The translations under genes and the position numbers were made by a program. A stretch of DNA of 64,000 nucleotides from Panorpa germanica. Its lineage: Eukaryota; Arthropoda; Insecta; Mecoptera; Panorpidae. The stretch covers positions 2,108,001-2,172,000 of the forward strand of contig OY783207.1 in the NCBI GenBank assembly GCA_963678705.1, read 5' to 3'. The notes under the pieces are model-generated. The model had not been told where the DNA came from. It searched no databases and saw nothing but the letters and a program-made list of their open reading frames with translations. Positions 7,628 through 39,994 of this stretch are shown one piece after another; position 1 is the stretch's first letter; each line of letters starts with the position of its first letter.

Positions 7628-8260
7628 AATGGGCTTGTGTCCTATGTCTATTTAATTTCTATAAAAGTGTACTATATATTGATAAAGTGGGTTACTAGAA
7701 CCTCAAATGTCCAATTATTGTTTAATAACTCTTTATATGTTAAGAGATATTAACAATTAAAAAAATCATTTTGTCTCTCTAATTATTAAAGGGATTCAAC
7801 GTTGTACACATTCCAAATGCATGTGACATCACAACTGCTGCCAACCTTACAGCTCATAAATCTCTAATATATGTATTTATATATCAAAATATTAAATATT
7901 ATTTACAGCTATTTCAAGGAACAATAAAATTTCAATATTATGTCTGCCTTAGCAGGGTTAAATAAAATAAAAACTTATTATTCTTTGACTTGACTTGATT
8001 ATTTCGACTACCAACAGCTACAAAACATTATCACAGCACTGATCTACTCAACAAATAACTGACGTTAAAATGCATTTCACATCATACAAATATGGCCGAC
8101 CATTTCTAACGCTAAAACTACAATTAAAACTTTTAATTGCTATATCTCAGTCAATATTTAGATATTTAATAAAATAGACACGCCAATACACATTTATTAA
8201 CATCAATTTCAATGAACAATTGAAAAATCGACCACTAAAAAATGAGGACACAAGCCCATT
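7628..8260 (+). mobile_element. Family A MITE, copy 1 (full length)
   Basis: The element is bounded by inverted ends AATGGGCTTGTGTCCT and its reverse complement (aggacacaagcccatt). Its ~600-bp interior recurs six more times in the window. Landmarks are 'tgggttactagaacctcaaa', 'gggattcaacgtt', 'ggttaaataaaataaaaac', 'tatggccgaccat' and 'gacacgccaatacacat'. There is no coding potential, so it depends on a transposase supplied elsewhere. The superfamily is unresolved because no consistent target-site duplication is visible when copies are compared. Confidence 0.92.
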
Positions 8261-8402
8261 GTTTATCAGAATACTTTATTTTCTGATATATCTTGCACAA
8301 CATTTTACTAAATGTGCCAAATCTTTTTTACACAATTTCTCTAACTCGAAAGCTTCAAAAGGTTCGGTAGGTGGGATACCTACTACCTAGACATTACCAT
8401 AT

Positions 8403-12731: not shown

Positions 12732-13208
12732 ATAATGGGCTTGTGTCCTATGTCTTGTTGACAAAAACTTGTTTTGTTATGAATGCAGCCCTTTAAATTT
12801 AATGGTTTCAATACAAAGAAAAGGTGACCTTGAGTTTCCGGCTTTAAAATATCATAGTGCACTCCATTGATGGCCATCCTACCTAATAGAAATACAAAAA
12901 GGAGCAATGCCTCGTTGTAAAGTCGATCAAATAGCTTGGACACACCTGATAGAAACCGGTTTTATTGCAAAGAATTTACTACGATATAACTGCAGTAGTG
13001 GAATCTTTGCGTATTGTAATTGGAGCCTCTTCAAAAACTGGGTTAGCTATGAATGGAAAATTGTATCAATGGTTGACCTTGAGTTTTTTGTTCACGCAGT
13101 GGTTATTTTTCTCTTTAAAATAATTATTACAAATTGGTCGAGAGTTTCTATTAATTAAAATTCTGTCCCGCGAGAAGCCAATTGTATTTAGTGACAATTA
13201 TCTTCTCA
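12732..13208. repeat. Orphan family A terminus plus 477-bp unique segment
   Basis: A perfect family A end (AATGGGCTTGTGTCCTATGTCTT) begins at about 12733, but the following ~450 bp differ from all other A copies. A second A end in the same orientation begins at 13209. The unique segment contains two opposite short open frames (12695-12943 minus and 12907-13158 plus), neither with a recognisable domain. It could be part of a longer relative of family A or a remnant of nested insertion. Confidence 0.6.
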
Positions 13209-13772
13209 TAATGGGCTTGTGTCCTATGTCTTAATTTCTATAAAAGTGTACTATATATTGATAAAGTGGGTTACTAGAACCTCAAATGTCCAATTATTTT
13301 TTAACGTCTCCTTATATGTTAATAGATATTAACAATTAAAAAAGTCATTTTCTCTCTTTAATTATTAAAGGGATTCAACGTTGTACCAACGTTTATACAA
13401 TAGAGCGTAAAAGAGATATGTTCTTGAACAACCTTACAGATCATAAATCTCTGCTATATGTATTTATATATCAAAATATCAAATATTATTTATTATGTCT
13501 GCCGTAACAGGGTAAAATGAAATAAAAACCTATTATTCTTTGACTTGACTTGATTATTTCGACTACCAACAGCTACAAAACATTACCACAGCACTGACCT
13601 ACTCAACAAGTAACTGACGTTAAAATGCATTTCACGTCATACAAATATGGCCGACCATTTTAAGCGCTAAAACTACAATTCAAACTTTTAATTGCTATAT
13701 CTCCGTCAATATTTAGATATTTAATAAAATAGACACGCCAATACACATTTATTAACATCAATTTCAGTTCAA
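13209..13772 (+). mobile_element. Family A MITE, copy 2 (3'-truncated)
   Basis: It starts with the full terminal repeat and follows the family A consensus through 'acacgccaatacacatttattaacatcaatttca'. Homology then stops about 60 bp before the expected right end, so the right inverted repeat is missing. A ~50-bp internal deletion near 13490 also distinguishes it. Confidence 0.9.
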
Positions 13773-15803
13773 TTTCCATTACTTCGATATACTTTGCTTT
13801 GAGTTATAAGCAGTGTACTCTTGATTTTTAAACAACCACTTCTTATACAGGGTCACCCTTCTTCAATTATTTCTTACATAAAATATTGGTTACACTTTTA
13901 GCAATAGTGTAGGAAGTGTTGCATAGTGACAGGCGCGGTACATTGTTTTCAATAACGAAATATACATTTTTTTATTCATATAAATATAATAGACATCGGA
14001 AGTATACGATTGTGTTCGGGATTATGCTGCATAATATTTCACAGGAAAACAGGATACACCATCGTATATAGTTTGGAACTCTCCGGATGTCCTCGCCATT
14101 GATATGTGTTCCACAGCTACTATAAACAGTTGAGTACAGCACCCTGGAGGACCGGCAACCACCATACTCGTAGTCAAGAACAATGCGAACACGGTTCGAA
14201 TCACACGCGAGTATTTTGTTCTACTATGTTCTCACTTAGATACATTTTGATTATAAAATATCAAATCGGTATTAATCGATCAAGTGAAAATTATAATAAC
14301 TTGTTAAATATTTTATACGATTTTGAAGCTCCCAAAAATCATTTTGTTATACTAGAGATTAAAAAAAGATTAAAAAAACGGTAAAATATATCGCCTGTGT
14401 GATTCACACCATTATTAAGGGGATTAACACTCAGCAGGAACTCTAAAGCGAGTCCAGGTCAATGCAGAACACAGCTACGGTATTCTCTCTAGTTTTAAAG
14501 CAATAAAATGTAACGAGTGATATCCCATTCCCAGAAACCCTCTGGTTTAAAGTTTAAAAGTAGTAGTTTGTAATGTTGTAATATAAATTTCAAAATGCCA
14601 ACGGCAAATTGTAAGAAAACTTTTATTTAGAAAAAAAAAACAACTTACAAAACTAATTATTGTACTTGTATGAGATACGATAAGATACTCTTGGTACTGC
14701 TTTCAGCAATATACGTCACCAGGAAAATTACAATTATTATAATTTAGAAAAAAACGATGAATTTTTATTTTAGTTTAACATTTAAAAGATGTTGACGGAT
14801 TACTTGCTTGCACTTCCATGTTTAAGCGATGATAAAATGTAATACCACTAAATGAATTCAACCATCAATGAAAAATATTTCTCACACCTGTTCATCGCAC
14901 CCATTGGTTAGTCGAGCCGGTTACCAACCAAACGTTTTTGAGTGTGTATGGGGCCTTTCAACATTGGAATGGGATTTACTCTGACACTACAATCTCCTTC
15001 ATATGCTATTCAGCATAGTTACAACACGCTGAAGCGGATAATGTGGACGTGGACACACAACAGACAGACAGACGTACATATATCTCAATGCGTACAATGG
15101 TTTGGAGAGAAATCTCCTGAATGTTGAAATCTGAATCTCCGAAATATTCTATAGCGTCAATGACAACGGCAACCACCAACTTGGACTATGGACAGCAAGC
15201 AAAGGATAAGACCATCAAGGATAAACATAAAGTGGTCTCGTCTCGCGTTGGTTCAATGTAAAGCTGCCAGAATATTATGAATACTGAGATAAAATTGTGG
15301 ACCACTGAAGGTGGACATTTTTTATTGAATTCTCAGTGAATTTATCATATTTCATAAAATATTATTAGTTGGAAGAAGTTTCATGATATATTCTTCGAGA
15401 CTTTTGTGATATTGATTTCATACTTTTAAGTAATTAAAGCAGTACGTATTCTAATTTACTTTTACTTATATCAGAATTTAGCCATGTTTGTTAAGGGTTT
15501 CTAAAATATAAAGTCTTTTAGAAATGCTGTTATTTAAAGGGACTTCCAACATTTTAAATCTACAGAAACACTCAATATTTTTCTTGAAGAGTGGTATATT
15601 TTATTCAAAGTAAAAATTCTGAGGTTAGTATTGGAACAACTTCTGCCGAATGTTGTTGTATGTTAACAGGAAAACTGGTGCATAATTTAAAATGACTAAT
15701 GCATATATACCTAAACCAAATCAAGGTTAAATAAGATATTAAACAAGGTGTCTTAAATAACTTTTTTCTTTTTAACTTCCACGCGTTATCAATTGCATTT
15801 AGT
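13773..15803. other. Noncoding stretch
   Basis: No recognised gene. It has an A-run at 14631-14640 and scattered 60-90-codon frames of random character. Confidence 0.45.
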
Positions 15804-16440
15804 CAGTGGCGTAGCTACCGTTGTATCTGACGTATCAATGATACGAGGCCCCTGATCTACAGCGCCCTCAAACGTGTGTAATCAAAAATTCTTCAATTTC
15901 TTCACTATTTGAAATAAATAATCCTGTTTCTATAGCTCATCAGTATGAAATTAATGACTTACAGAAATTTTGCATTTTGCAAAGTAATCTTTTGAATAGA
16001 CTGAGGCAGCCTCTGTACCTAAGTAATATGTTGGAAGTATTACAACTGGAGAAGCTCTTATCTTTTTCAAACGAAATAATAAAAAAGTATGCAGGAAAAC
16101 TGTCTGCTAAATACAGTAAGGACATGCCAGTTGATCTTTATAAACAATTAGTTGCTTTGAAAACATGCTTAAAATCTGAAATTCAGAAAACTCTTTCCAT
16201 TAAGGAACTTTTGCTGAGAAAATTCAATAGCCTTGCATCCAGTTTTGCGGAGGTAATAACAGCATGCTTTCTTTCATTCTTGATCCTTCCGGTTACAACT
16301 GCAACAGCAGAAGGAAGTTTTTCGAAATTAAAACTGATAACAAATTATCTAAGGACTTCTATGGAACAGGAAGGCTATCACAATTATCACTATTGTCTAT
16401 AGAGACAGAAAATCTGGGAGTCTGGGCTATTTTATATTTA
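15804..16440 (+). pseudogene. hAT transposase remnant (ZMYM1-like), internally deleted
   Basis: An open frame from about 15850 to 16402 encodes a C-terminal hAT transposase region. It contains LLRKFNSL and the hallmark dimerisation motif LPVTTATAEGSFSKLKLI followed by NYLRTSMEQE. hAT transposases cut and paste DNA; this C-terminal region mediates dimerisation. Directly after MEQE a one-base frameshift moves the expected continuation (RLSQLSLLSIETE) into another frame, so the gene is dead. The end-like motif CAGTGGCGTAGCTAC at 15804 lies only ~50 bp before the frame, so the N-terminal and catalytic core are deleted. No matching right end is seen. Confidence 0.85.
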
Positions 16441-17484
16441 AATACTTTTGAAAACTATTTGTGCACATCTCTAGTCATAACTATTGTTAAAGATCCATAT
16501 GTTTTTACCTAGCCATATTTAAATAACATAGCAATAAGCCCAAATTAGATAAACTAAGAAAGTAACTTTGATTGATTACTATTTCAACCATGATTGGAAG
16601 TGCTAAGTTGATTATGTGCGCTATGAAGTGACGCTTTGTTGCAAGTACACAACGAACAATTAATCTCTTCACGGCCAGTGTATATCTAGTTAGTGTTCAC
16701 TGTCGTAGTGTCGTCACAATACAAATGTGTTACTCAGTTAGATCAGCTGAAAAGGAATGTGACCAGAACTGGGCGACTGTTAGCCTATGCAAACTCATTG
16801 CAGATACATTCCTATCGTGGACATACAGACCAGAGACAATGCCCAGAGAATATGTACACAACATGCATCAAGGTACATGAATACACTGGGGTATATTCAT
16901 ATAGAGCGACGTGGGACAATAGTCAATCCATAGTCCCAGCATCTACCATCCGATCCGACATTACGTTATGGGTGATAGATAGGCTTACATACTGGGCTAT
17001 GTACTGTGCATACAACATGTGCATTTGTACATGGACTGCAACGTATCGTACAACGCTAAACACTATCATACAATTATATTAATGGTCCAGAAAATTTTGA
17101 TTCCTTGTTTTACCATCCGAGGCGAATGTTTTGACGTATATGTTGCGGTTAACCAAATATTGGTACCACTGTGCAGTAATAACTGAACTCTACATACATG
17201 TAAAATTGTTGTGGCTGTTAAATTCATATCAATTTACAAATTGTAATTATTATTTCATTTTGGTAAATAATGTGTTCGAAATACATTAGCTATGTTCTTC
17301 CTCTTTATATTTTAAGTACCAATCTTTTGTTTGATTTGTATTTAAGCTAAAGAAACATTAACTAAAGATGTTTCATTCAAATTTAAGTAAGAAACTATGG
17401 TTAGAAATAAGTCCCATAAAATTATATCGACTTAAAACTTATATGGTTAAAACTTTTATACTAAATTTTTGTTAAGTGATTCAA
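16441..17484. other. Noncoding stretch, then LINE tail
   Basis: A 129-codon plus-strand frame at 16693-17082 shows no domain and is judged chance. From about 17400 the sequence resembles the tail of the LINE fragment at 56110-56365 (shared 'actaaatttttgttaagtgattcaaaa'). That tail is interrupted by the family A copy at 17485. Confidence 0.55.
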
Positions 17485-18105
17485 AATGGGCTTGTGTCTT
17501 AATTTTTTAGTGGTCGATTTTTCAATTGTTGATTGAAATTGATGTTAATAAATGTGTATTGGCGTGTCTATTTTATTAAATATCTAAATATTGATGGAGA
17601 TATAGCAATTAAAAGTTTCAATTGTAGTTTTAGCGCTAGAAATGGTCGGCCATATTTGTATGACGAGAAATGCATTTTAACGTCAGTTATTTGTTGAGTA
17701 GGTCAGTGCTATGGTAATGTTTTGTAGCTGTTTGTAGTCGAAATAATCAAGTCAAGTCAAAGAATAATGAGTTTTTGTTTTATTTAACCCTGTTACGGCA
17801 GACATAATATTGGAATTTTAATGTTCCTTGAAACAGCTGTAAATAATATTTGATTTTTTGATATATAAATACATATAGCAGAGATTTGTGAGCTGTAAGG
17901 TTGGTAACGTTACACAAGGATTGTGATATCACATGCACTTGGAATGTGTACAACGTTGAATCCCTTTAATAATTAAAGAGACAAAATGACTTTTTTAATT
18001 GTAAATATCTCTTAACATATAAGGAGTTATTAAAAAATAATTAAACATTTGAGGTTCTAGTAACCCACTTTATCAATATATAGTACACTTTTATAGAAAT
18101 TAAGA
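17485..18105 (-). mobile_element. Family A MITE, copy 3 (reverse, one end worn)
   Basis: The left edge carries the terminal repeat AATGGGCTTGTGTC. The interior is the reverse complement of the A consensus, ending at 'ttatagaaattaaga'. The last ~18 bp of the outer repeat are replaced by unrelated AT-rich sequence. It sits inside a LINE 3' tail. Confidence 0.9.
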
Positions 18106-19421
18106 TGTAATGTATTATTTAAATATTTAGATATTTAATACTAAAATAGAATTATAAATGTTATGTTAAATATATCTAGAAATTGTTTGATGGTGGCTTT
18201 GGTGAATTAAACTTTCATATGAATATAAGAATGCAGTTTTCTAATCCTCATCTGTGATGCAACAAGCGCCATCTGAATGCACCATTACTTACAGCTTTAT
18301 TGCATTAACCTATTGCAGCTGATCTTGTCTTAAAGTACGTCTTTGTGAAAGTAGATTCACATGTCTTTCCTCGTCTCCTCGCGTGGAATCTCCGCATAAT
18401 CACATTACTCTGGATTCACTCGCAGAGCTGCTACTGGCACAAGTTGACACTCTAAGGGAGATGAAAGATCTTATGCTTATTTGTAAAGATCATAAACTCG
18501 AAGTGCTTTAAAGTAACTCTCAATTAACAACGAAACTTTGAAATAATTCCAAATCCAATAGTTGCAATTGTTTTACAATACATTAATATGGAAATTGGTA
18601 AAACACTATTACTTTGCTAAGATTTAAACCAAAGAATTCCTATTGCATGAACTTCATTTTTGAAAGAACACAGTCGTTATTTTGAGCAAGAACTTAGGCC
18701 ATTATTTTGTAACTTTTTCTCCGACGATATGTGTCATGAATTGGACTAGTATGATATTCATTTGTTCGATAATGTTTCAAGGAAAAACTAAAAGTGATTT
18801 TTTGTATGGTATGCTTTTTACTATGTGCGCAAATGCCTTTTGTTTGCTGATTGTCAAATTGTGAAATAATTTATTGAAATTTGGTCTTGTCAGTCAATTA
18901 CAAATAAATGTTATCTATATTTGTAGACACCCTGTATTGGAATAGCTGTATTATGTTGCATGTATTGTATTTTATAATAAATCCACAAAATCATTTCTTT
19001 TTTCATGGCGGTGCTTTACGATTATCACATAATGTGCAATAAACATAAAAAATATTATAAAATGTGATGACTAAAATAAAATATGCAATTTATTTATATA
19101 TTTTTGGTTGTTATTAAAATATCTAAAAATCCAATTTTGCTGCACATAAATTTTGTTATTGCTCATATCATTTATGAATCTGAATATAATTTTAATAGAT
19201 ATTCGTTTTATAGGATCATAGCAGCAGAATGTTACAAGTATATCTAAATGAAAAGTTTCTACCAAATCGGACAGGTAGTTCTGATTTGGTAGGACTCTTT
19301 GTCTATTAAAATGTAGAAGGAACTGTAGGAATTACACTCTATTAGTTGTTCCGAACATGATGTATATATTTACCATAAACAATAATAATATCAAGAACGA
19401 ACATTCAATAAAAACAGAAAT
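18106..19421. other. LINE tail remnant and noncoding sequence
   Basis: The first ~100 bp (to 'gtttgatggtggcttt' at about 18203) continue the LINE tail interrupted by MITE A. The remainder is AT-rich, with no exon recognised before the 3' end of the CBM39 gene. Confidence 0.5.
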
Positions 19422-19427
19422 TTTATT
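19422..19427 (-). promoter_or_regulatory. Polyadenylation signal AATAAA
   Basis: The plus strand reads tttatt, giving AATAAA on the minus strand about 82 bp past the stop codon of the CBM39 gene's last exon. Position and sequence fit a poly(A) signal for that transcript. Confidence 0.6.
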
Positions 19428-19508: not shown

Positions 19509-20083
19509 TTATGACAGCTCTTCTTGCGTTGGAGCCTTAAACCTGACATCAATTGAAGGTTCTTCTTCTTCCACGTTGTAGCTTTCCAACTTCAGCTTGG
19601 ACGATTTAAGCAGCTTCCTTGCTTGAGCCAACAACTTCAGTTTATTCTCGAAAGAGTTTACCGTAAATACAATATTACCATCCGTAGTTCTGTATGCAGA
19701 AAGAACTTTGATTGTTTCGTCCGAAACATTCAACTTCTCCGTTATGAAGGTCCTAGCAGCAGCTGGAGGATCTTCCCCTGCTGGTACCTTTCCAGACAGC
19801 AGCAGCATGCTGTTATCAGTTGTGTTCATCTCGTGAAGAAGTTCCGTTTGAAGCTCTCTAACTCCCTCCAGTTCTTTCGTCAGCTTGATAACCTCGCTTT
19901 CAAGATTTGCCAGTTCTGTTTTGGTATGGTTCACTTGGATGTACAACATCTGCATGTCTTTCGGGTCGCAGGGTACTGGAGAAGGGTGCGGGGATGTGTG
20001 GGGGACATCTGCATGAGTTACAGGGGCCTCGGATGTTGTATGATGGTGATGAGTGCTGTGGTCGTCATCATTAGGGATCAGTT
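19509..20083 (-). CDS. Terminal exon of CBM39 secreted protein: linker, coiled coil, ORF1/FP-like domain
   Basis: This is the last exon, beginning after a good acceptor (ctctttgttgcag, minus strand) and ending at TAA (19509-19511). It starts with two bases of a split codon, which joins in frame to the phase-1 donors of both CBM39 first exons and gives a Glu codon. The encoded 191 residues fall into four parts: an Asp/His/Thr/Pro-rich linker (about 5-40, including HHHH), a leucine-heptad coiled coil (about 43-87), a folded-looking domain (about 93-167, with FITEKLNV, SAYR, IVFTVNSF and ARKLLK), and an acidic tail. The last domain resembles the C-terminal domain of insect LINE ORF1 and FP25K-type proteins by pattern only. 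NHT, NTT and NVS are potential N-glycosylation sites, fitting secretion. No GH16 glucanase-like sequence is present, unlike typical GNBPs. The exon reading is strong; the domain assignment is tentative. Confidence 0.85.
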
Positions 20084-20174
20084 CTGCAACAAAGAGATAT
20101 TTAACGTTACTACACAAATAAAACATGAGCAATTAAACAAATAATGAATTGTCGGAGCTAAAGTCTCATTCCCA

Positions 20175-20578
20175 CTCACTGTTTCGATATTTAATTTACT
20201 GTTTTTATTTAATATTGTAATTTAGATTTCCGGTTTTCGTTTAAGCATTTCTTGTCACATTCGTGTTTCAATTTGAGTTTAGTTAATTTAGTTGGTGCGT
20301 ATGCAATTGTATGTGAAATAATTAAAATAGCTATTTTTAATAACAATTAGTAATATAAATTGTTTTCACTTCTATATTTTTCAAAAACTGACATTAAACT
20401 TCTTTTAAAAGTAAATTCTACTGCATTTTGACAGATTGACACATTTTGGAGGCTATAATATAATATAGTTTTTCTTAAAACATTGAAAACTTAAAAATTA
20501 AATTAAATTAAAAATGGTACTGTGAATAACTACGCGTATTGCCATATGCTAAACAATTTAAATTAAATACAAAATTAA
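20175..20578 (+). repeat. Family F interspersed repeat, copy 1
   Basis: A ~405-bp block shared with 36132-36576 and 44428-44880. It starts 'ctcactgttt', contains 'ttagttggtgcgtatgca' and 'gttttcacttctatatttttc', and ends 'acgcgtattgccatatgc'. No inverted ends or coding frame are visible, so the class is unknown. This copy lies in the CBM39 gene intron, about 90 bp from the splice acceptor. Confidence 0.85.
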
Positions 20579-21204
20579 AAGTGTAAACCTTGACTTTATT
20601 TTCGTAGTAATGTGTTAAAAAGAGATGGAAGATTTTTGTAATGCATTTTCTGTAAGAATTTTTACGTTTCACTTCTTTATATTTCTTAGACCACACTGCA
20701 ACCCCTATTCCATGGTTCCACCCACCCTTTACCCTGTTGTATTTCCATCAGTTCCCTTGTGCTATACTTGTAACCCCTTGTCATATTTGAATATTCTGCA
20801 CTCTGTTATATGTATGTATATATTTTTATTCTTGTACTACGTGTTTTATTTTAAGATAGTAAAAATTCTTTGATATTTATTTTCAAATTGGATCAGCACT
20901 GTTGAAAAGAATGTTGATGATTTCTTGTTACTAGTATCTTCTTTATTTAATGACTAACGGATAAGCCTGTTGGTGGTATTCACGTAAATGTACCAAAAAA
21001 CGTTTATGACAAATAAGTGTGTGTACGAAGTTCGTACACTGACATATAGATGGTAGTACTATTTACAAATCTATAGATTTTTAGATAGTACCAAACTTCA
21101 AACGATATGTATCAAAATTTGAAGACATTCCAAACATTAGTTTATGATTTACAGTGTTTTTAGTGACGCTACTTTTTTAGTGTTCAAAACAATAGACAAA
21201 TCTT
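20579..21204. other. Intronic noncoding sequence
   Basis: AT-rich sequence within the CBM39 gene intron (20084-24326 for the nearer first exon). No additional exon is recognised. Confidence 0.5.
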
Positions 21205-21843
21205 AATGGGCTTGTGTCCTATGTCTTAATTTCTATAAAAGTGTACTATATATTGATAAAGTGGGTTACTAGAACCTCAAATGTCCAATTATTTTTTAAT
21301 AACTCCTTATATGTTAAGAGATATTATCAATTAAAAAAGTCATTTTGTCTCTTTAATTATTAAAGGGATTCAACGTATTACTCATTCCAAGTGCATGTGA
21401 CATCACAATCCTTGTGTAAGGTTGCCAACCTTATATATCATAAATCTCTGCTATATGTATTTATATATCAAAATATCAAATATTATTTACAGCTATTTCA
21501 AGGAACAACCAAATTTCAATATTATGTCTGCCGTAACAGGGTTAAATAAAATAAAAACTTATTATTCTTTGATTTGACTTGATTATTTGACTATCAACAG
21601 CTACAAAATATTACCACAGCACTGACCTACTCAACAAATAACTGACGTTAACATGCATTTCACGTCATACAAATATGGCCGACCATTTCTAGCGCTAAAA
21701 CTACAATTCAAACTTTTAATTGCTATATCTCCGTCAATATTTAGATATTTATTAAAATAGACACGCCAATACACATTTATTAACATCAATTTCAATCAGC
21801 AATTGAAAAATCGACCACTAAAAAATGAGGATACAAGCCCATT
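21205..21843 (+). mobile_element. Family A MITE, copy 4 (full length)
   Basis: Both terminal repeats are present; the right one carries a single change (gatacaag for gacacaag). The interior is close to consensus over 639 bp. It lies in the intron of the minus-strand CBM39 gene. Confidence 0.93.
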
Positions 21844-22379
21844 GCATATGTTTTTTTATGTGAAATAGCTTTGCTTGAACGTTGCAAGATCCTCAATGCA
21901 GTTACAGTTTTAAATCTAAATGCATAAAATAATTTTACAAAAAACTTTTTCTTGTATTTTTGAATAGTTGAAAATAACTCTGTATTGTTGATGTAGTATC
22001 ATGAGCTTTGTGAACGCGAATCGAGCTTCGTAGGCTGAATCACTGACTGAATGTACAAATCCACTACAGCAATCATATTTCTGTTCTCAATACAATTGAA
22101 TACCGTAGTTACATAAAGAAAAATGAGAAAAATCATTCAGAAAATAACAAATTGATATATATTTCCATTTCGCCTTTATATTACAAAACAGATTGCACAG
22201 AGAAAATCGTATAACGTACGATAGCATGACGTTTCTCTATTTTACAACGGACATACTTGAAAAGTATACGTCACATGCTTCAACGCTTTTGTTTTTACCA
22301 TGGAATTATAAAAGAATCAAACGTTGTTATCATTTATTTTCGGCTAAGTCGAACTTAAGACCAAAATCAGGTGTAATAT
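21844..22379. other. Intronic noncoding sequence
   Basis: AT-rich. The open frame at 22193-22396 runs into a MITE and is not a gene. Confidence 0.5.
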
Positions 22380-22874
22380 TAGATATTAACAATTAAAAAA
22401 GTCATTTTGTCTCTTTAGTTATTAAAGGGATTCAACGTTATATACATTCCAAATAGTTATTAACCTTAGAGCTCATAAATCTTTGCATTATGTATTTATA
22501 AAATATCAAATATTATTTACAGCTATTTCAAGGAACAATACAATTTCAATATTATGTCTGCCGTAACAGGGTTAAATAAAATAAAAACTTATTATTCTTT
22601 GACTGGACTTGATTATTTGACTACCAACAGCTACAGAACATTACAACAGCACTGACCTATTCAACAAATAACTGACGTATACAATGCATTTCACGTCATA
22701 CAAATACGGCCGACCATTTCTTGCGCTAAAACTACAATTCAAACTTTTAATTGCTATATCTCCGTCAATATTTAGATATTTAATAAAATAGACACGCCAA
22801 TACACATTTATTAACATTAATTTCAATCAACAATTGAAAAATCGACCACTAAAAAATGAGGACACAAGCCCATT
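22380..22874 (+). mobile_element. Family A MITE, copy 5 (5'-truncated)
   Basis: Homology to family A begins internally at 'agatattaacaattaaaaaa' and continues to an intact right end (acacaagcccatt). About 140 bp of the left side are missing. It is in the CBM39 gene intron. Confidence 0.9.
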
Positions 22875-24326
22875 TGTTTCGCAATAAATTTCCAAAATAG
22901 GACAATGTCAAATAAGATAACCCAATTGACTGGAAATATAACTACCATCTCTAGTGGAAGCGTCAGTTTTATTTCATTATATTGAGGTTAAAAAACCAAG
23001 GTTTATTGACGTTAAAAATGAATTGTGACGTAACACATCTGACGTAATCAATTTATATTTTATTTAACACCGCTGCAACATGTTACTGTCAATATAGAAA
23101 TCAAAATTACAACCAGCATACGTGATTTCAGTTTAAAACGAATATATATATATAAAAAAAAAACATTTTATGAAGCACGTAACTCCTCCCCTTTCTGCTC
23201 AGCTCAGAAACCAACCCAACTCACTTAAAATTGCTACGTTAGGCCAAGGCACGTTACGAAGACATGTTAACTAAAATAGAGATTACGTGTCAATCTGTCA
23301 TACATTGTGATTTAAATTCTTTTTATAATAAATTGAAAATGGTCTTTGCTTTATACACGAGTATTTCGAAAGGTGACTGATGAACGGATTCATGTGAATA
23401 GTGGTGAGTGAGTGAGAGGGGCGGAAGGGGGTGGTTGATAACGTAACGTACTATGGAAAGCTGTCACAAATTCTTGGAAAAACTGAAAATATCCCAAAAT
23501 ATAAACGCCTACGTATATCTTCGTTTAGTTTCCTTTACTGATTGCTGCTGTATTGGATCATAAATATATTTTATTAAATATAAAGTCGGTTTACCAAATC
23601 TTAAAGAAAGTTTAACTGAATGTAAATAATCTTTAAAAATCTACGAATTCGTCGATACTATAATGTATGTTAAAAAGCAATTTTACGAAATGCAAGTAAG
23701 GTTTCCTATTAGGCACAGTTCAATAAAACACGAACAAAAACTTGTTTTTCTGAACAAAAACACCAATGTTTACACCAAAGAGACAGTTCTTAAAACATTT
23801 TTGTCTTTAAAAACTGTTTTAGTAAACAAAACACATTCTCATCTGGAGTCGTTAAAATCAAAGGAAAACACGTTTGTTGTTGTTTTATAGTCTGCTTGGT
23901 TTATACACGTAGTATTGTTTTTTGGGAGCATTTGCGCTTGTCAGTTGTTGTTTATCATGTTTATAATATTTATGGGACACACAGAAAAACACTCTGTTGA
24001 CAAAAAACCAGTCTGTTAAGTGTGATCAATCTGTTTTCGAAAAACAGGACTGTTTTAAAATAAAACAAAACATGTGCATGCGCTAAAAACTGAGGTGTTG
24101 TGTGCACATATTTATTCCCTTCCCTTTCTTTCGGGCTGTGTACCCTTACCTTAGGAAAAAATTACTATCAGGAATATGATCGCCGCCTAATTATTATGCA
24201 ACAGTTAATACATGACAATATTTTAACATACAAAACTTGATTAGAAAGAAGACTTCAAGGTCATAAGTCATTTACTTTTATTTATGTGTGTGTGTGTGTG
24301 TGTGTTTGTCACTTATGATAAAATAC
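22875..24326. other. Intronic noncoding sequence with (TG)n
   Basis: Remainder of the CBM39 intron next to the nearer first exon. A TG microsatellite lies at about 24285-24305, only ~20 bp from the splice donor. The ORF at 23663-23890 is Lys/Val-rich, without a recognised domain. Confidence 0.5.
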
Positions 24327-24735
24327 CTGTAACAATAAAGCTTTGAATTCCATATTGATATCCTAAATGGTCTTTTTGTACATAAAACCAATAATAAACA
24401 ATATCTCCAACTTGTAAAATGACATTTTTATCGTAGAACGTCCATCTTCCATTATTCGGCATTCGAACATCCCCTGCCAGTTCTGCACCATCCCCTACAT
24501 CTATCATCGTGTTAACACTTCCTTGAAACCCAAATAATTCAATACCGGGTTCATCAGGTATTGACACACGCAATCCTTTAGGTGACAAAGCCTCCACTAG
24601 GGGTCTAGGCATTTGATAAACCGTGTTGGTAATCCTTACAGATGGTTCCGTCTGTGTGGCAGTAGCGCTGGCAGCAAACTCTACCGTCAATGTCACACTC
24701 ACTATTAATGTTATTAAGATAAATGTTTTTGACAT
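24327..24735 (-). CDS. First exon A: signal peptide + CBM39 (beta-1,3-glucan recognition domain)
   Basis: ATG at 24735 opens 136 codons plus one base, ending at donor ACAG|GTATTT (phase 1). Residues 1-22 are a hydrophobic signal peptide. Residues about 39-136 are a CBM39 domain as in GNBP/beta-GRP pattern-recognition proteins: VEALSPKGLRVSIPDEPGIE, then NNGRWTFYD (Trp98), VGDIVYYWFYVQ (Trp116) and DHLGYQ. CBM39 binds fungal and bacterial beta-1,3-glucan extracellularly and triggers immune cascades. Joined to the exon at 19509-20083 it gives about 327 residues. The interval between SVN and GRW differs from the usual AGxMSxDI pattern, so binding may be altered. The open frame past the donor is intron. 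A TATAAG (24791-24796) and a TCAGT initiator-like site (24772-24776) lie upstream, but their spacing is short. Confidence 0.9.
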
Positions 24736-26950
24736 TATTATTTTATTTGTACACTAATTTAAAGTTTATTCACTGACGAGGTGTGTTCACCTTATAATTG
24801 TTTCACTATTCAGTAGCACGTGAACACTGCGATGTTACTGTTCTGTGTTTGAATTATCGATGTGTGGCATCTGAATAATATATGAGTTTAATTTAGTTGT
24901 CGGCGCAAGGTCGTGACGTACTGGAACCGCACTGTGTCAGAGTTGCTTCTTATCCATTGATTTACCATTGAATATTTATACAATTCATAAGGCGATCCGA
25001 CATTTGCACAGGTTTAAGCAGCATACCCACCAAAGAAACGTTGTTAGCGTGTTTGTTCATAACTTTCTCTTTCTTTTTCGAAGTTGAGTTGGAAACTGTT
25101 TTCCACTATGAGTGCAGGAATCTCTTCCTAGGTAGTGATAGCGAACAACCAGTCTAGATAGCGGTGTCTCAATCTATATATGTTATCAGAGATGTGCGTT
25201 TTTCAAATACATATACTCAAAATGCAATACCTCATTTCTATTTTGTATTTATATATCTTTTAAGAGTTACTACGTTTATGTTACTTCATAGTGTTAATCA
25301 GTAAATATTATTTTTTAAATATAAACTTAAAACCACACCAACATTAGCACCATCTATGATCTAAAAGTATCTGCACAATTGTCTTAATAATTCTAATTTA
25401 AAATGATAGATGTGCCTATTATTTTATTATCCTTCCTGTTACCCCCACCATAAGACATCTGATTTTCGTTAACCTAAATTTGTTTATCATATTTTCTCGT
25501 TCATTATTTGTTTTACTACAAATACATTCCTTACTGAAATATATATATACGTAAATATATATTATTTTACCTACTACCCCCACATGCGACATCCAACATT
25601 TACATATTTTCATTCATAAGTTGACATTATTTAGACATGAGTGTACTAAATGTGTTGTACTTTTAACGTACAGACTAGTGCAACATAAACATGCGACACT
25701 AATAAAACCCTTACTCACAAATTAAGTACTGCCTTTTAACAGTTTATTATTAACTGACAGTACCAAAATGAAATTATTTAAGGCGCCAAATTTAAATTAA
25801 ATTAATTGCTTACTCGTTGTTGTTTGCAAATACTGTTTCTACTTTAAATACATGTATTTATCTAGTGAGTATCCTGCTTTAGATGACAAATACCGGTATA
25901 CCACAAGCATCTCCGATCAAAACAAGTTATTAGATAATAGTTGGTTAGGCACCTTTGAAATTGTGTAATAATATTTATTATGTTTTGCATTTTTAGGTAT
26001 TGCATGCTTGGACGTCTCATCAGAATGGTCCCTCACTGATCGCAGTAAGAGCGTCCCAAGGAGCAGGCCTGCTCAGCCTACATGTAGACTAACATATGTA
26101 AGTGAATATTTTTTATTTATATAAGAAACTGTAAGAAATACCACTTTCAACTTCATTGGTTGCTTATGACTATTAACAATCTAAAAAAGAACCCATTTCT
26201 ATCTTGCAAATATGGTATTTCTGGTATAAACAAAACCTTATCAATCTTTAAAACTCCACGAATTATTTGTGCAATAATTAGTAGTTACGTAATTCATAAT
26301 AAAACACCAACGTATTAGAGGAACCCCCGCGAGAACGCTATGCCACGTATCCTTTTTGAATCGGTTTGTTTTCAATCGTCTATGACTAATATTTATTTCT
26401 TTATTTTATTTTTAAGATATATGGAATTTTATAACATTTTATGTACTAATACTTATTATTAGTTGATGCACAATAAATAAATAAAAAAAATTTAATTGAA
26501 CCAGTCGAATATGTTACAAGGTTATACAAATTAATTTTTATTAACGCAATAATGGACCAAAGAGTTCCAGTTAATTTTATTGCATGATTATTTGTTCATC
26601 TTAAATGGAATTTTGTTTTACTACTGCATTAACTTTTGTCACGGCTTTCTCTTTTCAATGTAACCAGACCAAGGTACCAGAATTTGTCTCAAAAAATTGC
26701 CTTAATTTATTTGATTTAATTTTATTTAACGCTGAGTCTTATCACCGACAACCTCCTCTAATACTGGTAGTATTTATGATGTCGTGGCCTAACAAAAGCC
26801 TCATTAGTGTTATTTTTACGAGCATGTAATCAAATTAAATCTGGTAACAAACAAACTCACAAAATATTGCGCTGGTCCGGAGATTAAGCCCGATGATCAT
26901 GTCACTATTAAATTCGATGTGTTACTAGACAGGACAGACAGTTGTCTATA

Positions 26951-26951
<1 letters not shown>
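24736..26951. other. Noncoding: upstream of exon A, intron of exon B form
   Basis: If the far first exon is spliced to the shared last exon, this is intron; for the nearer exon it is promoter and upstream sequence. No other exon is recognised. A ~45-bp motif (tattattttatt...ccccca...gacatc) appears twice, near 25415-25465 and 25560-25600. Confidence 0.5.

Positions 26952-26989
<38 letters not shown>
26952..26989. repeat. (TA)n microsatellite
   Basis: About 19 TA units directly abut the terminus of the minus-strand Helitron fragment. Confidence 0.95.
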
Positions 26990-26990
<1 letters not shown>

Positions 26991-27350
26991 TAGCTGTCCC
27001 GGCCACGCGTTGCTGTGCCTAACGTTTTTGTCATATTACATTACATAGCGCCATCTATTGAATATTTACTCAATCTAGTCAACAGATTTCGATTTACTCA
27101 ACAGAATATTTACTCAATCTAGTCAACAGATGTCGCCATCATCGTCGCCCGATGTCATATGCCATATACAGATAATTAATAGACAAATAATTAGCAATAA
27201 GATAAATAAATTGAGATGTAAGCTATTCTATCTTTCAAGTTGGATCAAACTGCACAGGGTGTACAAATTTGATTAAAATCGGTTAAGTAGTTTAGGAGTC
27301 CATCGCGGACAAACACGGACAAACAACGTGACACGTAATTTATATATATT
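26990..27350 (-). mobile_element. Helitron 3' end, inverted fragment
   Basis: On the minus strand this ends ...GGGACAGCTAG at 26990, followed by T, the Helitron CTAG|T signature. Over about 350 bp it is the reverse complement of the 3' half of the complete element ending at 28945, including a tandemly duplicated 'gaatatttactcaatctagtcaacag' unit. Homology stops at the (AT)n tract, so the 5' part is missing. Confidence 0.8.
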
Positions 27351-27351
27351 A

Positions 27352-27353
<2 letters not shown>

Positions 27354-27437
<84 letters not shown>
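27354..27437. repeat. Long (AT)n microsatellite
   Basis: More than 40 AT dinucleotides at the broken edge of the Helitron fragment. The complete Helitron has only a short 'tatatatata' at the homologous point, so the tract expanded here. Confidence 0.95.
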
Positions 27438-27441
<4 letters not shown>

Positions 27442-27931
27442 TAGGGCTAGGTAATTGAAAGAAATTTGTCAGGAAGTAAAAAAACAGCATTTTAAGAGTG
27501 TATTATTTAATTCTTCCTGGTTTATTACCATCAAATCATTCAAAACTTCCGGTAATTATAGTTATAAAGAAAAAATGAACACAAATTTAAATTTTAATTA
27601 ATATCATAAATAATGTATAGAATATTTAATTCGCATAATTAATTATAAAGGTCATTTGATCGACATATTTGTACTGATTGAGACCTCATAATATTTAGTA
27701 TAGTTCAACTTACAAGAGTTCGACGTTCACTCATGCTTAAAACAAATTGTGTCGTATAAATCTGCAATGCAATGAAAAGCCACTATCTCTCATTGTTTTA
27801 TAATGTGTATAAGAACAAATAAGATGAAATTCATCATTGCATCGTAAATTTACGCGACACCTATATGAGTTGCTATCAAACTCTCATAATTTGGACTATA
27901 TATTTAGTACAAACAAATTCATATTAATTAA
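27438..27931. other. Noncoding AT-rich sequence
   Basis: Nothing recognised between the AT tract and the Helitron 5' end. Confidence 0.5.
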
Positions 27932-28945
27932 TCTATACTAATATTATAAAGCGACAGAGTTTGTTTGTTTGAACGCGCTAATCTCCGAAACTACTGGTTC
28001 GAATTGAATAATTCTTTTTGTGTTGGATAGTCCAGTTATCGAGGAAGGCTATAGGCTATATAACATCACGCTACGACCAATAGGAGCAAAGAGTTTTCCG
28101 TTGCGTGCGCCGTGAAAACGGTTCGAGATACACAAAAAATATGTATTAAAGAATAATAGCTCTTTTAATGATCTAAAAAACAGTCCGCAATAGTATATGT
28201 CTATCGTTTAAGATTAACTCACAAAAACCGTTTTTATGGTAATTCAACAAAAAACTTTAAAGATTACAATGATAAATAACTCCGAAACAAAACCAACTCG
28301 CTCTCTGCGCTGGCCGGCGCGGCGGGAGAGAGGCGGTGCTTGCGGGCAAGCCGGGAGGGGGGTGTAGCTCAACGAGATACCATGCCGCGCGGGTCACTCG
28401 CGCGGTCGGTTCCCTACTGAACGGTTGAATGCAGCGCTAATTTGTTTATGCGATATAATTATCATCGTAATATTACTTTTTAAACACAGTTTCATTTTGT
28501 AGTTGTTTTCTATATAGTAGGTACTTTATTTGTTTTAGGATAGTATTTAGTTACACAATAATAACACTTTTTTGTTTTCATGTAGATTATTAATTTATAT
28601 ATATAAATTACGTGTCACTGTGTTGTCCGCTATGGACTCCTAAACTACTTAACCGATTTTAATGAAATTAGTACACCGTGTGCAGTTTGACCCAACTTGA
28701 AAGATAGGATAGCTTACATCTCAATTTATTTATCTTATTGCTAATTATTTGTCTATTAATTATCTGTATATGACATATGACATCGGGCGACGATGATGGC
28801 GACATCTGTTAACTAGATTGAGTAAATATTCTGTTGAGTAAATCGAAATCTGTTGACTAGATTGAGTAAATATTCAATAGATGGCGCTATGTAATGTAAT
28901 ATGACAAAAACGTTAGGCACAGCAACGCGTGGCCGAGACAGCTAG
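27932..28945 (+). mobile_element. Complete non-autonomous Helitron
   Basis: It begins TCTATACTAATATTATAAAG, a 5' terminus typical of many insect Helitrons, and ends ...GAGACAGCTAG. The flanking bases are A on the left and T on the right, as expected for insertion between A and T without target duplication. Length is 1014 bp. It has no Rep/helicase frame. A GC-rich core (about 28307-28420) contains a perfect 7-bp stem CCGCGCG/CGCGCGG around a 7-nt loop (28385-28405). Early text 'gaaactactggttcgaattg' matches the usual post-5' Helitron sequence style. Confidence 0.85.
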
Positions 28946-30029
28946 TAATATTATAGAAGCAAACGAACGATTCCCATACGAATAGCAAATGCAAATGTTT
29001 ACCATATTAATGTTATTTATACAGGATGCGGTTAGGTTTATTTAGCTTAGTGTCTGTATTTATCAGCCGACAGATTTTATCGTTTTTATTGTTTTCATAT
29101 GTTAAAACCACTAAATTTAAACAACCTCATGTAAATTAACCTTGAAATAATTTTGTATTCATTTTGATTGTTAATTTCATTTTTAATTAAAGGTGTTCTC
29201 TCATAAGAACGAGTTTTAATCTGCTTTGAAGGTCCGCAGGTTCACACCGCTGGAAAGTAGAGGTCAAAATAAGGCGCTAAATAAAAATCGTTCAGAATTA
29301 GATTTTTCGGGACCTCTACTTTTAAAATTTATTGAAAAAATATATCGTTTTTTAATTTATGATATATAAATATTATTTAGCGATTAGAGAAGAATAACTA
29401 TATCAAATTTAGGAACTTTACTAATTTTTTTAATATTTTTAAAGGACTCCTTTTGTATAGCTTCCGAATATGATTCATAATTTTCAATATATTAAAAAAA
29501 CATGAATTTTCTCGATGTTTATTTTGAACTTATCCATTTTTGCTACTGCGCAACTCATAATGATACAAAAAAACCCATGTTATAATGATGAACGAACGAG
29601 ATGTTTAATTTTATTCGTATTTCTAATGAAACAGTAGTTCATGGAATTCATTACATGAATACTCAACACAGTAAACTTTACCTTTGATATTTAAATGAAA
29701 AAATTTATTGAATTTAATTAAAAAATATACAGAGACATTATTGGAAATACATATATAAAATAACATTCCAAGGACGACCACCAGTTTATTATAAATATAT
29801 AATTAGTTGCTTGCTAATTATTATTTTCGTAGTTAAAAATTTAATATTTATAATCCAAAAAAAAAAAACTTTTTTTTATGTACATTTTAATTTTAGAATC
29901 AAGCGGATGCTTTTATTTTGTTTGTTATTTAGCAGCCGCCACTCAAAGCGATATCTTTTAATTGGTGTGTTTTACTTTCGTCCATCTTTAAAATATAGTA
30001 AACTTCAGGAAAGGATGTGCAAGGTGTGC
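28946..30029. other. Noncoding AT-rich sequence
   Basis: No exon or repeat recognised; an A/T-homopolymer patch lies at about 29858-29877. Confidence 0.5.
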
Positions 30030-30237
30030 TAGAGAGAGATAGAAACGCTGGAGCTCATTAAGTATTCATGTGAGAAAAGAGTAAAAAGTGAAAAGAAGAT
30101 TGTGCAGTTATTGTGCAGGGCAAAGATAGAGAGAAGGATAAAGGAAGGAGAAGGAAGAACAGAGTAGAAACAGGAGAGAAAGAGAAGCATTTTTCTATTT
30201 TCTTTTGGAAGGAGTAGATAGAATAAGGATCACAAAA
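30030..30237 (+). pseudogene. R1-like LINE 3' fragment (family E), copy 1
   Basis: Sequence from 'gaaacgctggagctcattaag' to 'cttttggaaggagtagatag...aaggatcacaaaa' matches the end of the longer family E copy at 48125-48640. It corresponds to the ORF2 C-terminus and 3' UTR. It contains stops. It lies in the intron, on the opposite strand, about 20 bp from the exon B splice donor. Confidence 0.8.
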
Positions 30238-30254
30238 TGTAATGATTACAATAC

Positions 30255-30630
30255 CTTGAATAGTATACGATTGTTCATCTCTCCTGTATCCCAAACGATC
30301 CTTCTGCACAAATGTCCAATAGTTGACCACATCTCCTACTTCTAATTGTACATCAGGATTATAATATGTCCATCTTCCATCTCCTGGTGACAGGATATCA
30401 ATCGACATTCGTCCAGCCGCTAAACCCACCACAGGTTCATTCACGCTTCCATGAAATGCAAATAATTCAACTCCTGGAGTATCAGGTATAGACACCCTTA
30501 ACCCACGTGGGGTCAGAGCTTCTACACGTGCTACAGGCACGTGGTACGGTTGACTATGATAACGATTTGATGATTTTCTTCCAGCGAAAACAATAGCAAT
30601 TGTTGCTAACAATAGCAACAAACGAAACAT
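30255..30630 (-). CDS. First exon B: signal peptide + CBM39 (beta-1,3-glucan recognition domain)
   Basis: ATG at 30630 opens 125 codons plus one base, ending at donor CAAG|GTATTG (phase 1). This is the same codon position as in exon A. Residues 1-16 are a hydrophobic signal peptide. Residues about 29-125 form CBM39: VEALTPRGLRVSIPDTPGVE, AGRMSIDILSPGDGRWTYY (Trp87), VGDVVNYWTFVQKDRLGYR (Trp105). The match to the family's usual pattern is better than in exon A. The two domains are clearly paralogous. No second downstream exon is visible between here and exon A, so it probably splices to 19509-20083 (about 316 residues). Alternatively it belongs to a separate gene that lost or never had its own last exon here. 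The open frame beyond the donor reads through intron and LINE sequence and is not coding. Confidence 0.88.
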
Positions 30631-35865: not shown

Positions 35866-36131
35866 GACAGAATGTGAAAATGATGTAGAAGCGAAATTAT
35901 GGAGCATATGCGGAAGGCAAATGGAAAAATTAGAACACATTAAGTATAGGTGTCAGGATAAATTGGAAAGTGAAATAACCTTGAAGGAGTTATTACAAGA
36001 AAAGAGGGAGGTAAAGAGAAAGAGAAGAGAGAAGGAGGAGAAACTTTGGGAGCAGAGGGAATCGTGAAAGGATTGCCAGAGAAGGGAAATAACAAGGGAG
36101 ATAAAATTTGAAAAGGAAGAAGAGAATTTCC
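35866..36131 (+). pseudogene. R1-like LINE fragment (family E), copy 2
   Basis: The plus-strand frame contains a CxxxMEKLEHIKYRCQ motif, corresponding to the C-terminal zinc-finger-like region of R1-type ORF2. A Lys/Glu-rich tail (about 36000-36066) follows. It ends where family F copy 2 begins. Truncated at the 5' side. Confidence 0.8.
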
Positions 36132-36576
36132 GCTCACTGTTTTGATATTTAATTTACAGTTTTTATTTAATATTGTAATCTAGATTTCAGGTTTTCGTTT
36201 AAGCATTCCTTTTCACATTTGTGTTTTAATTTAAGTTTAATTAATTTAGTTGGTGCGTATGCATCATTAGTAATATAAATTTTGACAGTTCGACTATTTT
36301 TAATAGCAATTAGTAATAGAAATTGTTTTCACTTCTATATTTTTCAAAGAACTGACATTAAACTTCTTTTAAAAGTAAATCCTACTGCATTTTGACAGAT
36401 TGTCACATATTGGAGGTTATAATATAATAGTTTTTCTTAATTTAATATTTTTAATTTAAAACATTGGACATTGTAAGGTTCTACAAAAACTAAGAAAACT
36501 TAGTTAAAATGAATTAAATTAAAAATGGTACTGTGAATGACTACGCGTATTGCCATACAAAATACAAAATTAAATT
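36132..36576 (+). repeat. Family F interspersed repeat, copy 2
   Basis: Shares start, internal landmarks and the 'acgcgtattgccata' end with copies at 20175 and 44428. It abuts a family E LINE fragment directly, either by insertion at its end or by joint mobilisation. Confidence 0.85.
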
Positions 36577-37335
36577 AAAGCAGAGAGTGGCCCCGTGAAG
36601 GCAGAAACAATAAAATATAATGCATAGTAGTATTTAATGTCCTTAGATTCGAAAACATATTTTCCAAAAAAGAAAATTAGAATAAATGTAAATTTATTGA
36701 TTGTCAGGGTCGTGTATACCCTTAGTAATGCAATGCAAAGTTCAGAAAATGTCATCGTCACCTTTAAAATCATATTAAAAGTATTCTGTTTTATTACAGA
36801 ACATTTCAGGGTCCATAACCACGGCCACTTTCCCCCCGTTAATGGCCCCCCCTCGGCCCCATGTCCTTATGGGTCTTAATTTAGTTTAATGTATCGAGCT
36901 TATTCTAAAGCGCGTCATATTTCATCTTTACGGCCGCGGAAAGGGAGGCGTCACAAACAGGAAATACTGCAAACCACGACAATTCAAACAAAGCCAAGTC
37001 GAGTCGAGCTTTTGCGAGCTTTTACTACATTTATGCTTCATTGCTATTAATTTTCGTATACGTATACAGTTTACGCTGGTCCTGCTGGTTATGGCATCAT
37101 CGCGCTCGAAATGGTTGTAATCTGCATGCTGGAGTCTGTACAAGCCTTCGGGTCGGTGTCACGGCACTCCCATCGCGCGCACGGTCTTATACTCCCGACG
37201 CAGAAGGGTCACGGAGTCCTAGTGTCGTCAACAGGAACTAAAGTTGTTTAATGGGGTGCAGTACTGACAGCTGGTTAATTTGCATTCCCCTCATATCAAT
37301 ATCAAGGAAGATATCTTAAGAACATTAAGTATATC
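36577..37335. other. Noncoding sequence, C-rich patch
   Basis: A C-rich patch lies at about 36830-36858. Frames at 36928-37241 have no recognised domain. Confidence 0.45.
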
Positions 37336-37650
37336 TTCAATAATGTTTTTTGACGACACAGGTAATATATAATTATTTCTATAATTACTACATGATAAAG
37401 ACATTTGAAGAATACTTTGTGCAATTTTCATAAATAAATATCAAGAAATGAGGTATTGACAGCGAATCTCCGCAGACGTCACAAAAAAAAGTAACATTGC
37501 GATGTCCCTCATAACTCATCACTGGATTTTCTGAAATCGAAAAACCAAAATGATTTCATTAGTTGATAAGTTTCTGCAGGTAACGCTGTCGAATTTTTCT
37601 TTTTTTATTGATTTTTCAATTTTTTAAAGCGCTTAAAACTTCAGAAAAAC
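37336..37650 (-). repeat. Family B element, copy 2 (half)
   Basis: Reverse orientation, from 'aataatgttttttgacgacac' through the reverse of the 'tttcgatttcag' tract to 'acgctgtcgaattttt', ending near 'aaagcgcttaaaact'. The other half of the element is missing. Confidence 0.85.
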
Positions 37651-39342: not shown

Positions 39343-39994
39343 GGATTTATTTATATTATTGTACAACATATTAAGTTTATTGTGTACAAATTTGAAGTCA
39401 ATTGGAGTAAAACTGTCGGAGATATAAACTTTTAAGTCTTCACCTCTCTTGTTACTTTGAAACTTTTAAATGCGTTTTCTCACACATAGCTTTTTCAGAG
39501 TCGGTGCTCTCTCTAGCTCTAAATCTACTGCACCGATTCTTTTGAAATTTTGCACACTCTTTCTTTACATAAATGCCGAGTTAACGCTGTCGAGTTTTTT
39601 TTAATTTAACATATTTTAAAATAACAAAGTTTCTGAATTTTTTCATGAAAAATCTTTTAAGTTCTGTAAAAAAATGAAAAATCTAAAAACAAAGAAAAAC
39701 TCGACGGGGTTACCTGCAGAAACTTATCAACTAATGAAATCATTTTGGTTTTTCGATTTCAGAAAATCCAGTGATGAGTTATGAGTGGCACCGTAATGTT
39801 ACTTTTTTTTGTGATGTCTGCGGAGATTCGCTGTCAATGCCTTATTTCTTGATATTTATTTATGAAAATTTCACAAAGTATTCTTCAAATGTCATTTTAT
39901 CAACTAGTAATTACAGAAATAATTATATATTAACTGTGTCGTCAAAAAACATTATCGAAAATATGCTTCTTTTTCATCGTTTTGACCAACTTAA
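39343..39994 (+). repeat. Family B element, copy 3
   Basis: A nearly complete copy running from 'tttatttatattattgtac' to 'cgttttgaccaacttaa'. It contains the intact short open frame at 39771-40019 (MMSYEWHRNVTFFCDVCGDS...) preceded by the 'tttcgatttcag' tract. The right edge has TTAA at 39991. Confidence 0.85.

What the first reader, a model, noticed from the sequence alone, without database searches (positions are those of the whole stretch)
19509..30630. Two CBM39 first exons share one terminal exon: likely alternative-promoter immune receptor gene
Seen: two paralogous exons (24327-24735, 30255-30630), each with ATG, signal peptide and CBM39, both ending phase 1 at GT donors in the same codon position. 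A single exon with a matching acceptor and phase lies downstream (19509-20083), with AATAAA 82 bp past its stop. No other downstream exon is visible. Inference: promoter choice swaps the glucan-binding module on a constant stalk, so one locus would yield two recognition specificities.
Basis: partly seen in the sequence, partly recalled or inferred. Interest (0 to 1): 0.85.

Follow-up and report, generated by a model that had tools for sequence, protein, structure and literature searches.

The report
Two glucan-binding exons sharing one stalk
In what looks like an insect genome, two different sugar-sensing first exons appear to share a single downstream exon, predicted to form a coiled-coil stalk with a small folded domain resembling part of a jumping-gene protein, so one gene may make two versions of a clustered immune sensor; no transcript evidence was available.

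Summary
Exons A (24327-24735) and B (30255-30630), minus strand, each encode a hydrophobic leader plus one CBM39 (Pfam E 2.3e-30 and 1.7e-31), are 43% identical, and end in phase 1 at GT. Exon C (19509-20083) has a strong acceptor (3rd of 588 AG sites), the matching phase, 191 open codons, and AATAAA 82 bp past its stop. Apart from sites inside B and C, it is the only phase-1 acceptor in 19.0-31.2 kb scoring 2 or more that opens over 42 codons. tblastn finds no third CBM39 exon and no second C in the window. Alternative first exons on a shared terminal exon are the best reading, from sequence alone; A or B might instead make a CBM39-only protein. New here: C is not a bare stalk. It is predicted as a 47-residue helix with coiled-coil heptads plus a beta-alpha-beta-beta-alpha-beta domain. 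Its best PDB fold matches, in two models, are human LINE-1 ORF1p trimers, with marginal E-values and no sequence-level support. I read the product as an oligomeric glucan-binding lectin with exchangeable CBM39 heads. Two different specificities are not shown.

The parts
30255..30630 (-). Exon B: ATG, hydrophobic leader and one CBM39; ends phase 1 at GT (30254-30253)
   Evidence: Pfam CBM39 E 1.7e-31; phmmer to solved beta-1,3-glucan-binding protein domains, best E 2.1e-29; translation
24327..24735 (-). Exon A: ATG, hydrophobic leader and one CBM39; ends phase 1 at GT (24326-24325)
   Evidence: Pfam CBM39 E 2.3e-30; 43% identical to B; translation
19509..20083 (-). Exon C: candidate shared terminal exon, phase-1 acceptor (AG 20085-20084), 191 codons and stop (19511-19509)
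   Evidence: acceptor ranks 3rd of 588 AG sites; open frame longer than in each of 300 simulated copies; single copy in window
19824..19964 (-). within C: predicted long helix with coiled-coil heptads (exon C residues 41-87); the exon's only Cys is residue 39, just before it
   Evidence: AlphaFold2 helix 41-87, block-mean pLDDT 77-94 over residues 41-80; 11 of 14 a/d positions aliphatic in residues 44-89, reached by 0 of 10000 shuffles; coordinates checked by translation
19575..19811 (-). within C: predicted beta-alpha-beta-beta-alpha-beta (RRM/ferredoxin-like) domain (residues 92-170)
   Evidence: Foldseek best matches human LINE-1 ORF1p; coordinates checked by translation
19422..19427 (-). 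AATAAA, 82 bp past the stop of C
24277..24282 (-). AATAAA 31 bp past exon A's read-through stop (TAA 24313-24315); possible end of a CBM39-only transcript
20165..20580 (.). interspersed repeat that begins 82 bp from exon C's first base, inside the intron (other copies about 36126-36579 and 44416-44881)
   Evidence: self-BLAST

Best explanation
One secreted-lectin gene, probably of an insect, on the minus strand. Two paralogous first exons (B, then A 5.5 kb nearer), each probably with its own transcription start, carry a leader and a CBM39 of the beta-1,3-glucan-binding kind. Each is spliced in phase 1 to the same last exon C. C supplies a His/Pro-rich linker, one cysteine, a coiled coil that makes the protein oligomeric, and a small RRM-like folded domain. 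The product is a GNBP-like protein without the glucanase-like (GH16) domain: a multivalent glucan binder whose head is chosen by promoter and whose oligomerising tail is constant. Shown: the exons, phases, CBM39 identity, and absence of another candidate exon by these tests. Predicted: coiled coil and fold. Inferred: both junctions, separate promoters, oligomerisation, secretion, immune role, differing specificity.
For: CBM39 in both exons with phase-1 donors. A strong phase-1 acceptor opens 191 codons, with no rival over 42 codons outside B and C. No third CBM39 exon or second C in the window by tblastn. Of the 33 other minus-strand frames of 45 or more codons between C and B, all were scanned and none reached a Pfam cut-off (best sub-threshold hit FANCL_C, E 0.0032, 18.2 bits against 27.3). 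Joining to C extends the CBM39 match to position 104 of 107 for both. Of the AG sites at 24501-25400, those that would place A's domain in frame after B either run into stops or score -0.45 or less. dN is well below a saturated dS. Coiled coil: helix, and 0 of 10000 shuffles reach the heptad count. GNBPs without the glucanase-like domain have precedent in Drosophila CG13422 and CG12780 (PMC2685406, passages; the paper says 'CR domain', which I equate with CBM39).
Against: No transcript data and no relatives of the gene could be obtained. No whole genome is held. Scans of viral contigs with C and with B, and of bacterial/archaeal genomes with B, gave no real relative. The B donor is only 53rd of 727. 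Exon A read-through gives GILS*, then AATAAA 31 bp further, and scores nearly as well on CBM39 as the spliced form (106.0 against 106.6 bits). No convincing promoter motifs.
Confidence: 0.62

Rival explanations
1. Exon A is mainly a single-exon CBM39-only gene ending at TAA 24313-24315 (like Drosophila CG13422/CG12780), and only B is spliced to C.
For: In-frame stop after four further codons and AATAAA 31 bp later; Pfam score of the read-through 106.0 bits against 106.6 for the spliced form; such short proteins exist (PMC2685406, passages).
Against: A has the better-ranked of the two donors (24th of 727 against 53rd), in the same phase and at the same place in the domain as B's; the spliced form extends the CBM39 match to position 104 instead of 97.
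Confidence: 0.13
2. Exon B uses another, short terminal exon, or reads through to the stop at 30060-30058, and does not share C.
For: B's frame stays open for 65 codons past its last complete exon codon; ATTAAA at 29962 and AATAAA at 29917 lie further on; weak donor rank; terminal exons under 30 codons were not examined.
Against: The read-through looks low-complexity, partly overlaps an interspersed repeat (30036-30112), and does not raise the CBM39 score (108.3 bits, against 108.5 for the exon alone and 109.5 spliced). No acceptor scoring 2 or more opens over 42 codons in phase 1 between B and C.
Confidence: 0.13
3. B or A is a decayed or unexpressed duplicate, so the locus makes one protein only.
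For: No expression data; a 10-kb intron with repeats lies between B and C.
Against: Both frames are intact with ATG, leader, CBM39 and donor; dN 0.56 against saturated dS 2.6.
Confidence: 0.09
4. Exon C is unrelated to the CBM39 exons: a retrotransposon ORF1 remnant or an independent gene that happens to have a matching acceptor.
For: LINE-1 ORF1p is the best PDB fold match; C's frame reads 16 codons upstream of the acceptor and includes an ATG.
Against: The frame is intact and ends close to a polyadenylation signal; there is no other copy in 64 kb. No minus-strand frame of 80 or more codons lies at 14221-19073, and the one at 19074-19331 has no Pfam match, so no reverse transcriptase was seen beside it. 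The acceptor is 3rd of 588 and in the right phase.
Confidence: 0.03

Closest known systems
Insect beta-1,3-glucan recognition proteins (betaGRP/GNBP3)
   Same: N-terminal CBM39 after a leader; five solved chains match B at E 2.1e-29 to 1.3e-24, named beta-1,3-glucan-binding protein and Gram-negative binding protein 3. Species names of these chains are recalled, except Plodia and Bombyx for 3AQX/3AQY (PMC3975366, passages)
   Different: No glucanase-like GH16 domain found; a predicted coiled coil plus RRM-like domain follows instead
Drosophila CG13422 and CG12780 (signal peptide + CR domain only; PMC2685406, passages)
   Same: Short GNBP-type proteins without the glucanase-like domain
   Different: [quoted passage not shown] here a large shared tail exon is predicted
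PGRP-LC of Drosophila and Anopheles (PMC2715215, passages)
   Same: One locus swaps recognition modules on an invariant part by alternative exon use, in insect innate immunity
   Different: PGRP-LC is a transmembrane receptor (abstract's listing) whose alternatives are ectodomains chosen by splicing; here the alternatives are first exons, and I see no membrane segment in C by eye (not tested)
LINE-1 ORF1p (PDB 2ykq, 2ykp, 2yko) and the domesticated mammalian L1TD1 (PMC4161310, passages)
   Same: Coiled coil followed by an RRM-fold domain; best PDB fold match in two models
   Different: No detectable sequence similarity, no C-terminal domain recognised, and C is predicted to be part of a secreted protein
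Variable-first-exon loci such as UGT1A (recalled, no call)
   Same: Several first exons with own promoters on shared downstream exons
   Different: Different function; two first exons and one shared exon here

Membership tests
GNBP/betaGRP family | N-terminal CBM39 | tested here: met
   Pfam E 2.3e-30 and 1.7e-31
GNBP/betaGRP family | C-terminal glucanase-like (GH16) domain | tested here: not met
   No GH16 in exon C nor in any of the 33 other minus-strand frames of 45 or more codons between C and B; precedent for members without it
GNBP/betaGRP family | Binds beta-1,3-glucan | not testable with these tools
   33 of 81 columns shared by two solved domains are kept in both A and B; contact residues not checked, the structure papers are not held
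Alternative-first-exon locus | Both first exons have donors in the phase of one shared acceptor | tested here: met
Alternative-first-exon locus | Two transcription starts and both junctions used | not testable with these tools
   no RNA data; promoter motifs inconclusive
LINE-1-like ORF1p | Coiled coil followed by RRM fold | tested here: inconclusive
   predicted in the best model of each of two runs, but only two of five models in each run had mean pLDDT above 60
LINE-1-like ORF1p | Sequence similarity to ORF1p families | tested here: not met
   no such hit at E up to 10 in Pfam (its filters drop most matches above 0.1) or PDB
LINE-1-like ORF1p | C-terminal domain after the RRM | tested here: not met
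   only 21 residues, mostly of low confidence, follow the last strand; the trimmed model adds one more low-confidence strand

The most novel reading that the evidence does not exclude
The shared tail exon is a captured retrotransposon ORF1p (coiled coil plus RRM) turned into a secreted oligomerisation module, onto which an insect locus loads alternative glucan-binding heads by promoter choice: a jumping-gene-derived multivalent lectin of innate immunity.
Probability: 0.2. Interest if true: 0.78.

Novelty: new variant of a known kind. Interest (0 to 1): 0.5.

Why it matters
If true, an insect glucan-sensing locus would swap its recognition domain by promoter choice, much as PGRP-LC swaps its ectodomains by splicing (PMC2715215, passages), but in a soluble oligomeric lectin. 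That gives a simple, testable case of how receptor diversity arises by duplicating first exons. If the tail derives from a retrotransposon ORF1p, it would be a rare domestication of that protein for an extracellular role; PMC4161310 (2014; [quoted passage not shown]

Tried and rejected
CBM39 exons in series: rejected as an in-frame product of strong acceptors (AG sites at 24501-25400).

A GNBP with a GH16 exon between the CBM39 exons and C: not found in any of the 33 minus-strand frames of 45 or more codons there. Shorter frames were not scanned. Four of these frames gave sub-threshold Pfam hits (PsbM E 0.9, TBP-TOTE 0.015, DUF2953 0.071, FANCL_C 0.0032), read as chance.

Relatives: viral-contig scan with C, no relative. 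Viral-contig scan with B, one hit over query residues 83-99 (L001), which lies in a 565-codon frame of a viral-contig record and is a chance match by my reading. Genome-contig scan with B, nothing. Rfam: no match in the window at gathering score.

Hdd13 as a CBM39 protein: a recalled lead. The listing of seven papers that hold the word showed no link to CBM39.

Weak Pfam hits of C or of the joined proteins (Ta1207 E 0.0097, Spc24 E 5; HAP1_N E 0.065) are below their cut-offs and were not used.

Literature: I saw no paper on a CBM39 gene with alternative first exons or a coiled-coil tail in the listings of the searches nearest to that question (2 papers, 20 of 6,074 listed, 15 papers, 20 of 46 listed, 15 of 988 listed). 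I read listings and passages, no whole paper. The library holds open-licence papers only.
Full report
What is there. On the minus strand lie, in order, exon B (30630-30255), exon A (24735-24327) and exon C (20083-19509). A and B each start with ATG, encode a hydrophobic leader and one CBM39, and end in phase 1 at a GT. The best solved relatives of B are chains named beta-1,3-glucan-binding protein (A was not searched). A and B are 43% identical over 122 aligned positions, and 49 of 97 domain positions agree. C begins after a pyrimidine-rich acceptor, has the matching phase, is open for 191 codons, and is followed by AATAAA 82 bp after the stop.

Is it more than chance. The frame containing C (207 codons) exceeds the longest one-strand frame in each of 300 simulated copies of the 12.2-kb region (median 96, maximum 193). 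C is 46% GC in a 31.5% GC region. Of acceptors scoring 2 or more, nine open 30 or more codons in phase 1: C, two inside C, two inside B, and four of 31-42 codons, one of which is a TA repeat. Between A and B, dN is 0.56 and dS 2.6 by NG86 (dS is saturated, so the ratio is rough; YN00 failed), with more changes at third codon positions (79) than at first (52) or second (46) over 125 codons.

Who joins whom. The window holds no third CBM39 exon and no second C by tblastn with a cut-off of E 100. For A to follow B in series, the stop-free in-frame acceptors among AG sites at 24501-25400 lie inside A's leader or domain and score -0.45 or less; those upstream of A's ATG run into stops. Joined to C, the CBM39 matches extend from profile position 96 (A) and 95 (B) to 104 of 107. 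Against this, A's read-through (four codons, TAA, then AATAAA at 24282) scores 106.0 bits against 106.6 for the spliced form, so the profile does not separate them well. A CBM39-only product of A therefore stays open; [quoted passage not shown] None of the 33 other minus-strand frames of 45 or more codons between C and B reaches a Pfam cut-off, so no GH16 exon was seen.

What C is. C has a linker rich in His and Pro, a single Cys (residue 39), three N-x-S/T sites (residues 52, 87, 119), and a run with 11 of 14 heptad core positions aliphatic that none of 10000 shuffles matched. AlphaFold2 without an alignment gave a helix 41-87 followed by strand, helix, strand, strand, helix, strand (mean pLDDT 70.2, pTM 0.45; five models 70.2, 63.1, 47.8, 47.8, 44.1). 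A trimmed construct gave the same order with one added strand (mean 69.0, pTM 0.43; five models 69.0, 64.5, 47.4, 45.7, 45.4). Foldseek against the PDB put three chains of the human LINE-1 ORF1p trimer at ranks 1-3 of 1477 matches (E 1.7e-3 to 3.7e-3, probability 1.00). For the trimmed model, 2ykq_A was rank 1 of 1052 (E 0.025, probability 0.94) and 2yko_B rank 13, with mostly ribosomal chains between. Among viral models, five of the top 20 are baculovirus proteins named RRM domain-containing or FP/25K (ranks 2, 3, 5, 10, 19). TM-scores of the ORF1p rows are low (0.37 or less by query), rmsd is 12-13, no match in the three searches reached E 0.001, and no sequence search found ORF1p. So the order coiled coil then RRM-like fold is supported, while descent from ORF1p is a lead only: ORF1p may simply be among the few solved chains with that order.

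How it most likely works. The head binds triple-helical beta-1,3-glucan, as CBM39 does in betaGRP (PMC3975366, passages), and the coiled coil makes it multivalent. Choosing the first exon chooses the head. B retains more residues shared by two solved domains (3aqy, 2rqe) than A does (13 columns against 6, 33 kept by both, of 81). B is therefore the likelier classical glucan binder and A the more altered one. This is inference.

Context. The rest of the 64 kb shows mobile-element traces: a weak hAT C-terminal match and an RNase H match, and several repeat families. Ten other open frames chosen from the rest of the window gave no Pfam match at E 0.01.

Verdict. Observation confirmed, interpretation partly supported. 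It is a new variant of a known kind: a GNBP-like CBM39 protein without a glucanase domain, with probable alternative first exons comparable to the module swapping of PGRP-LC (PMC2715215, passages), and an unusual coiled-coil plus RRM-like tail.

Noticed in passing
7627-8264, 13206-13773, 17484-18105, 21201-21849, 22377-22881, 57049-57671, 60951-61602: A repeat of about 500-650 bp occurs at least seven times in the window, in both orientations, two copies inside the A-C intron.
   Followed up: no
495-1137, 37326-37647, 39345-39989, 42551-43090, 54298-54948, 62364-63025: A second repeat family with six full or partial copies (about 320-670 bp); some copies carry short open frames with similar peptides.
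   Followed up: no
26978-27321 and 28613-28955: Inverted copies of a 345-bp repeat (96% identical) flank about 1.3 kb in the B-A interval, beside a long TA run.
   Followed up: no
15842-16399 (+) and 59684-60361 (+): Remnants of a hAT transposase C-terminus (E 2.9e-4, 21.0 bits against a cut-off of 21.4) and of an RNase H (E 2.6e-6), the latter probably from a retrotransposon.
   Followed up: partly
19557-20141 (+): A 195-codon open frame on the opposite strand overlaps exon C; read as a shadow of the coding strand.
   Followed up: no
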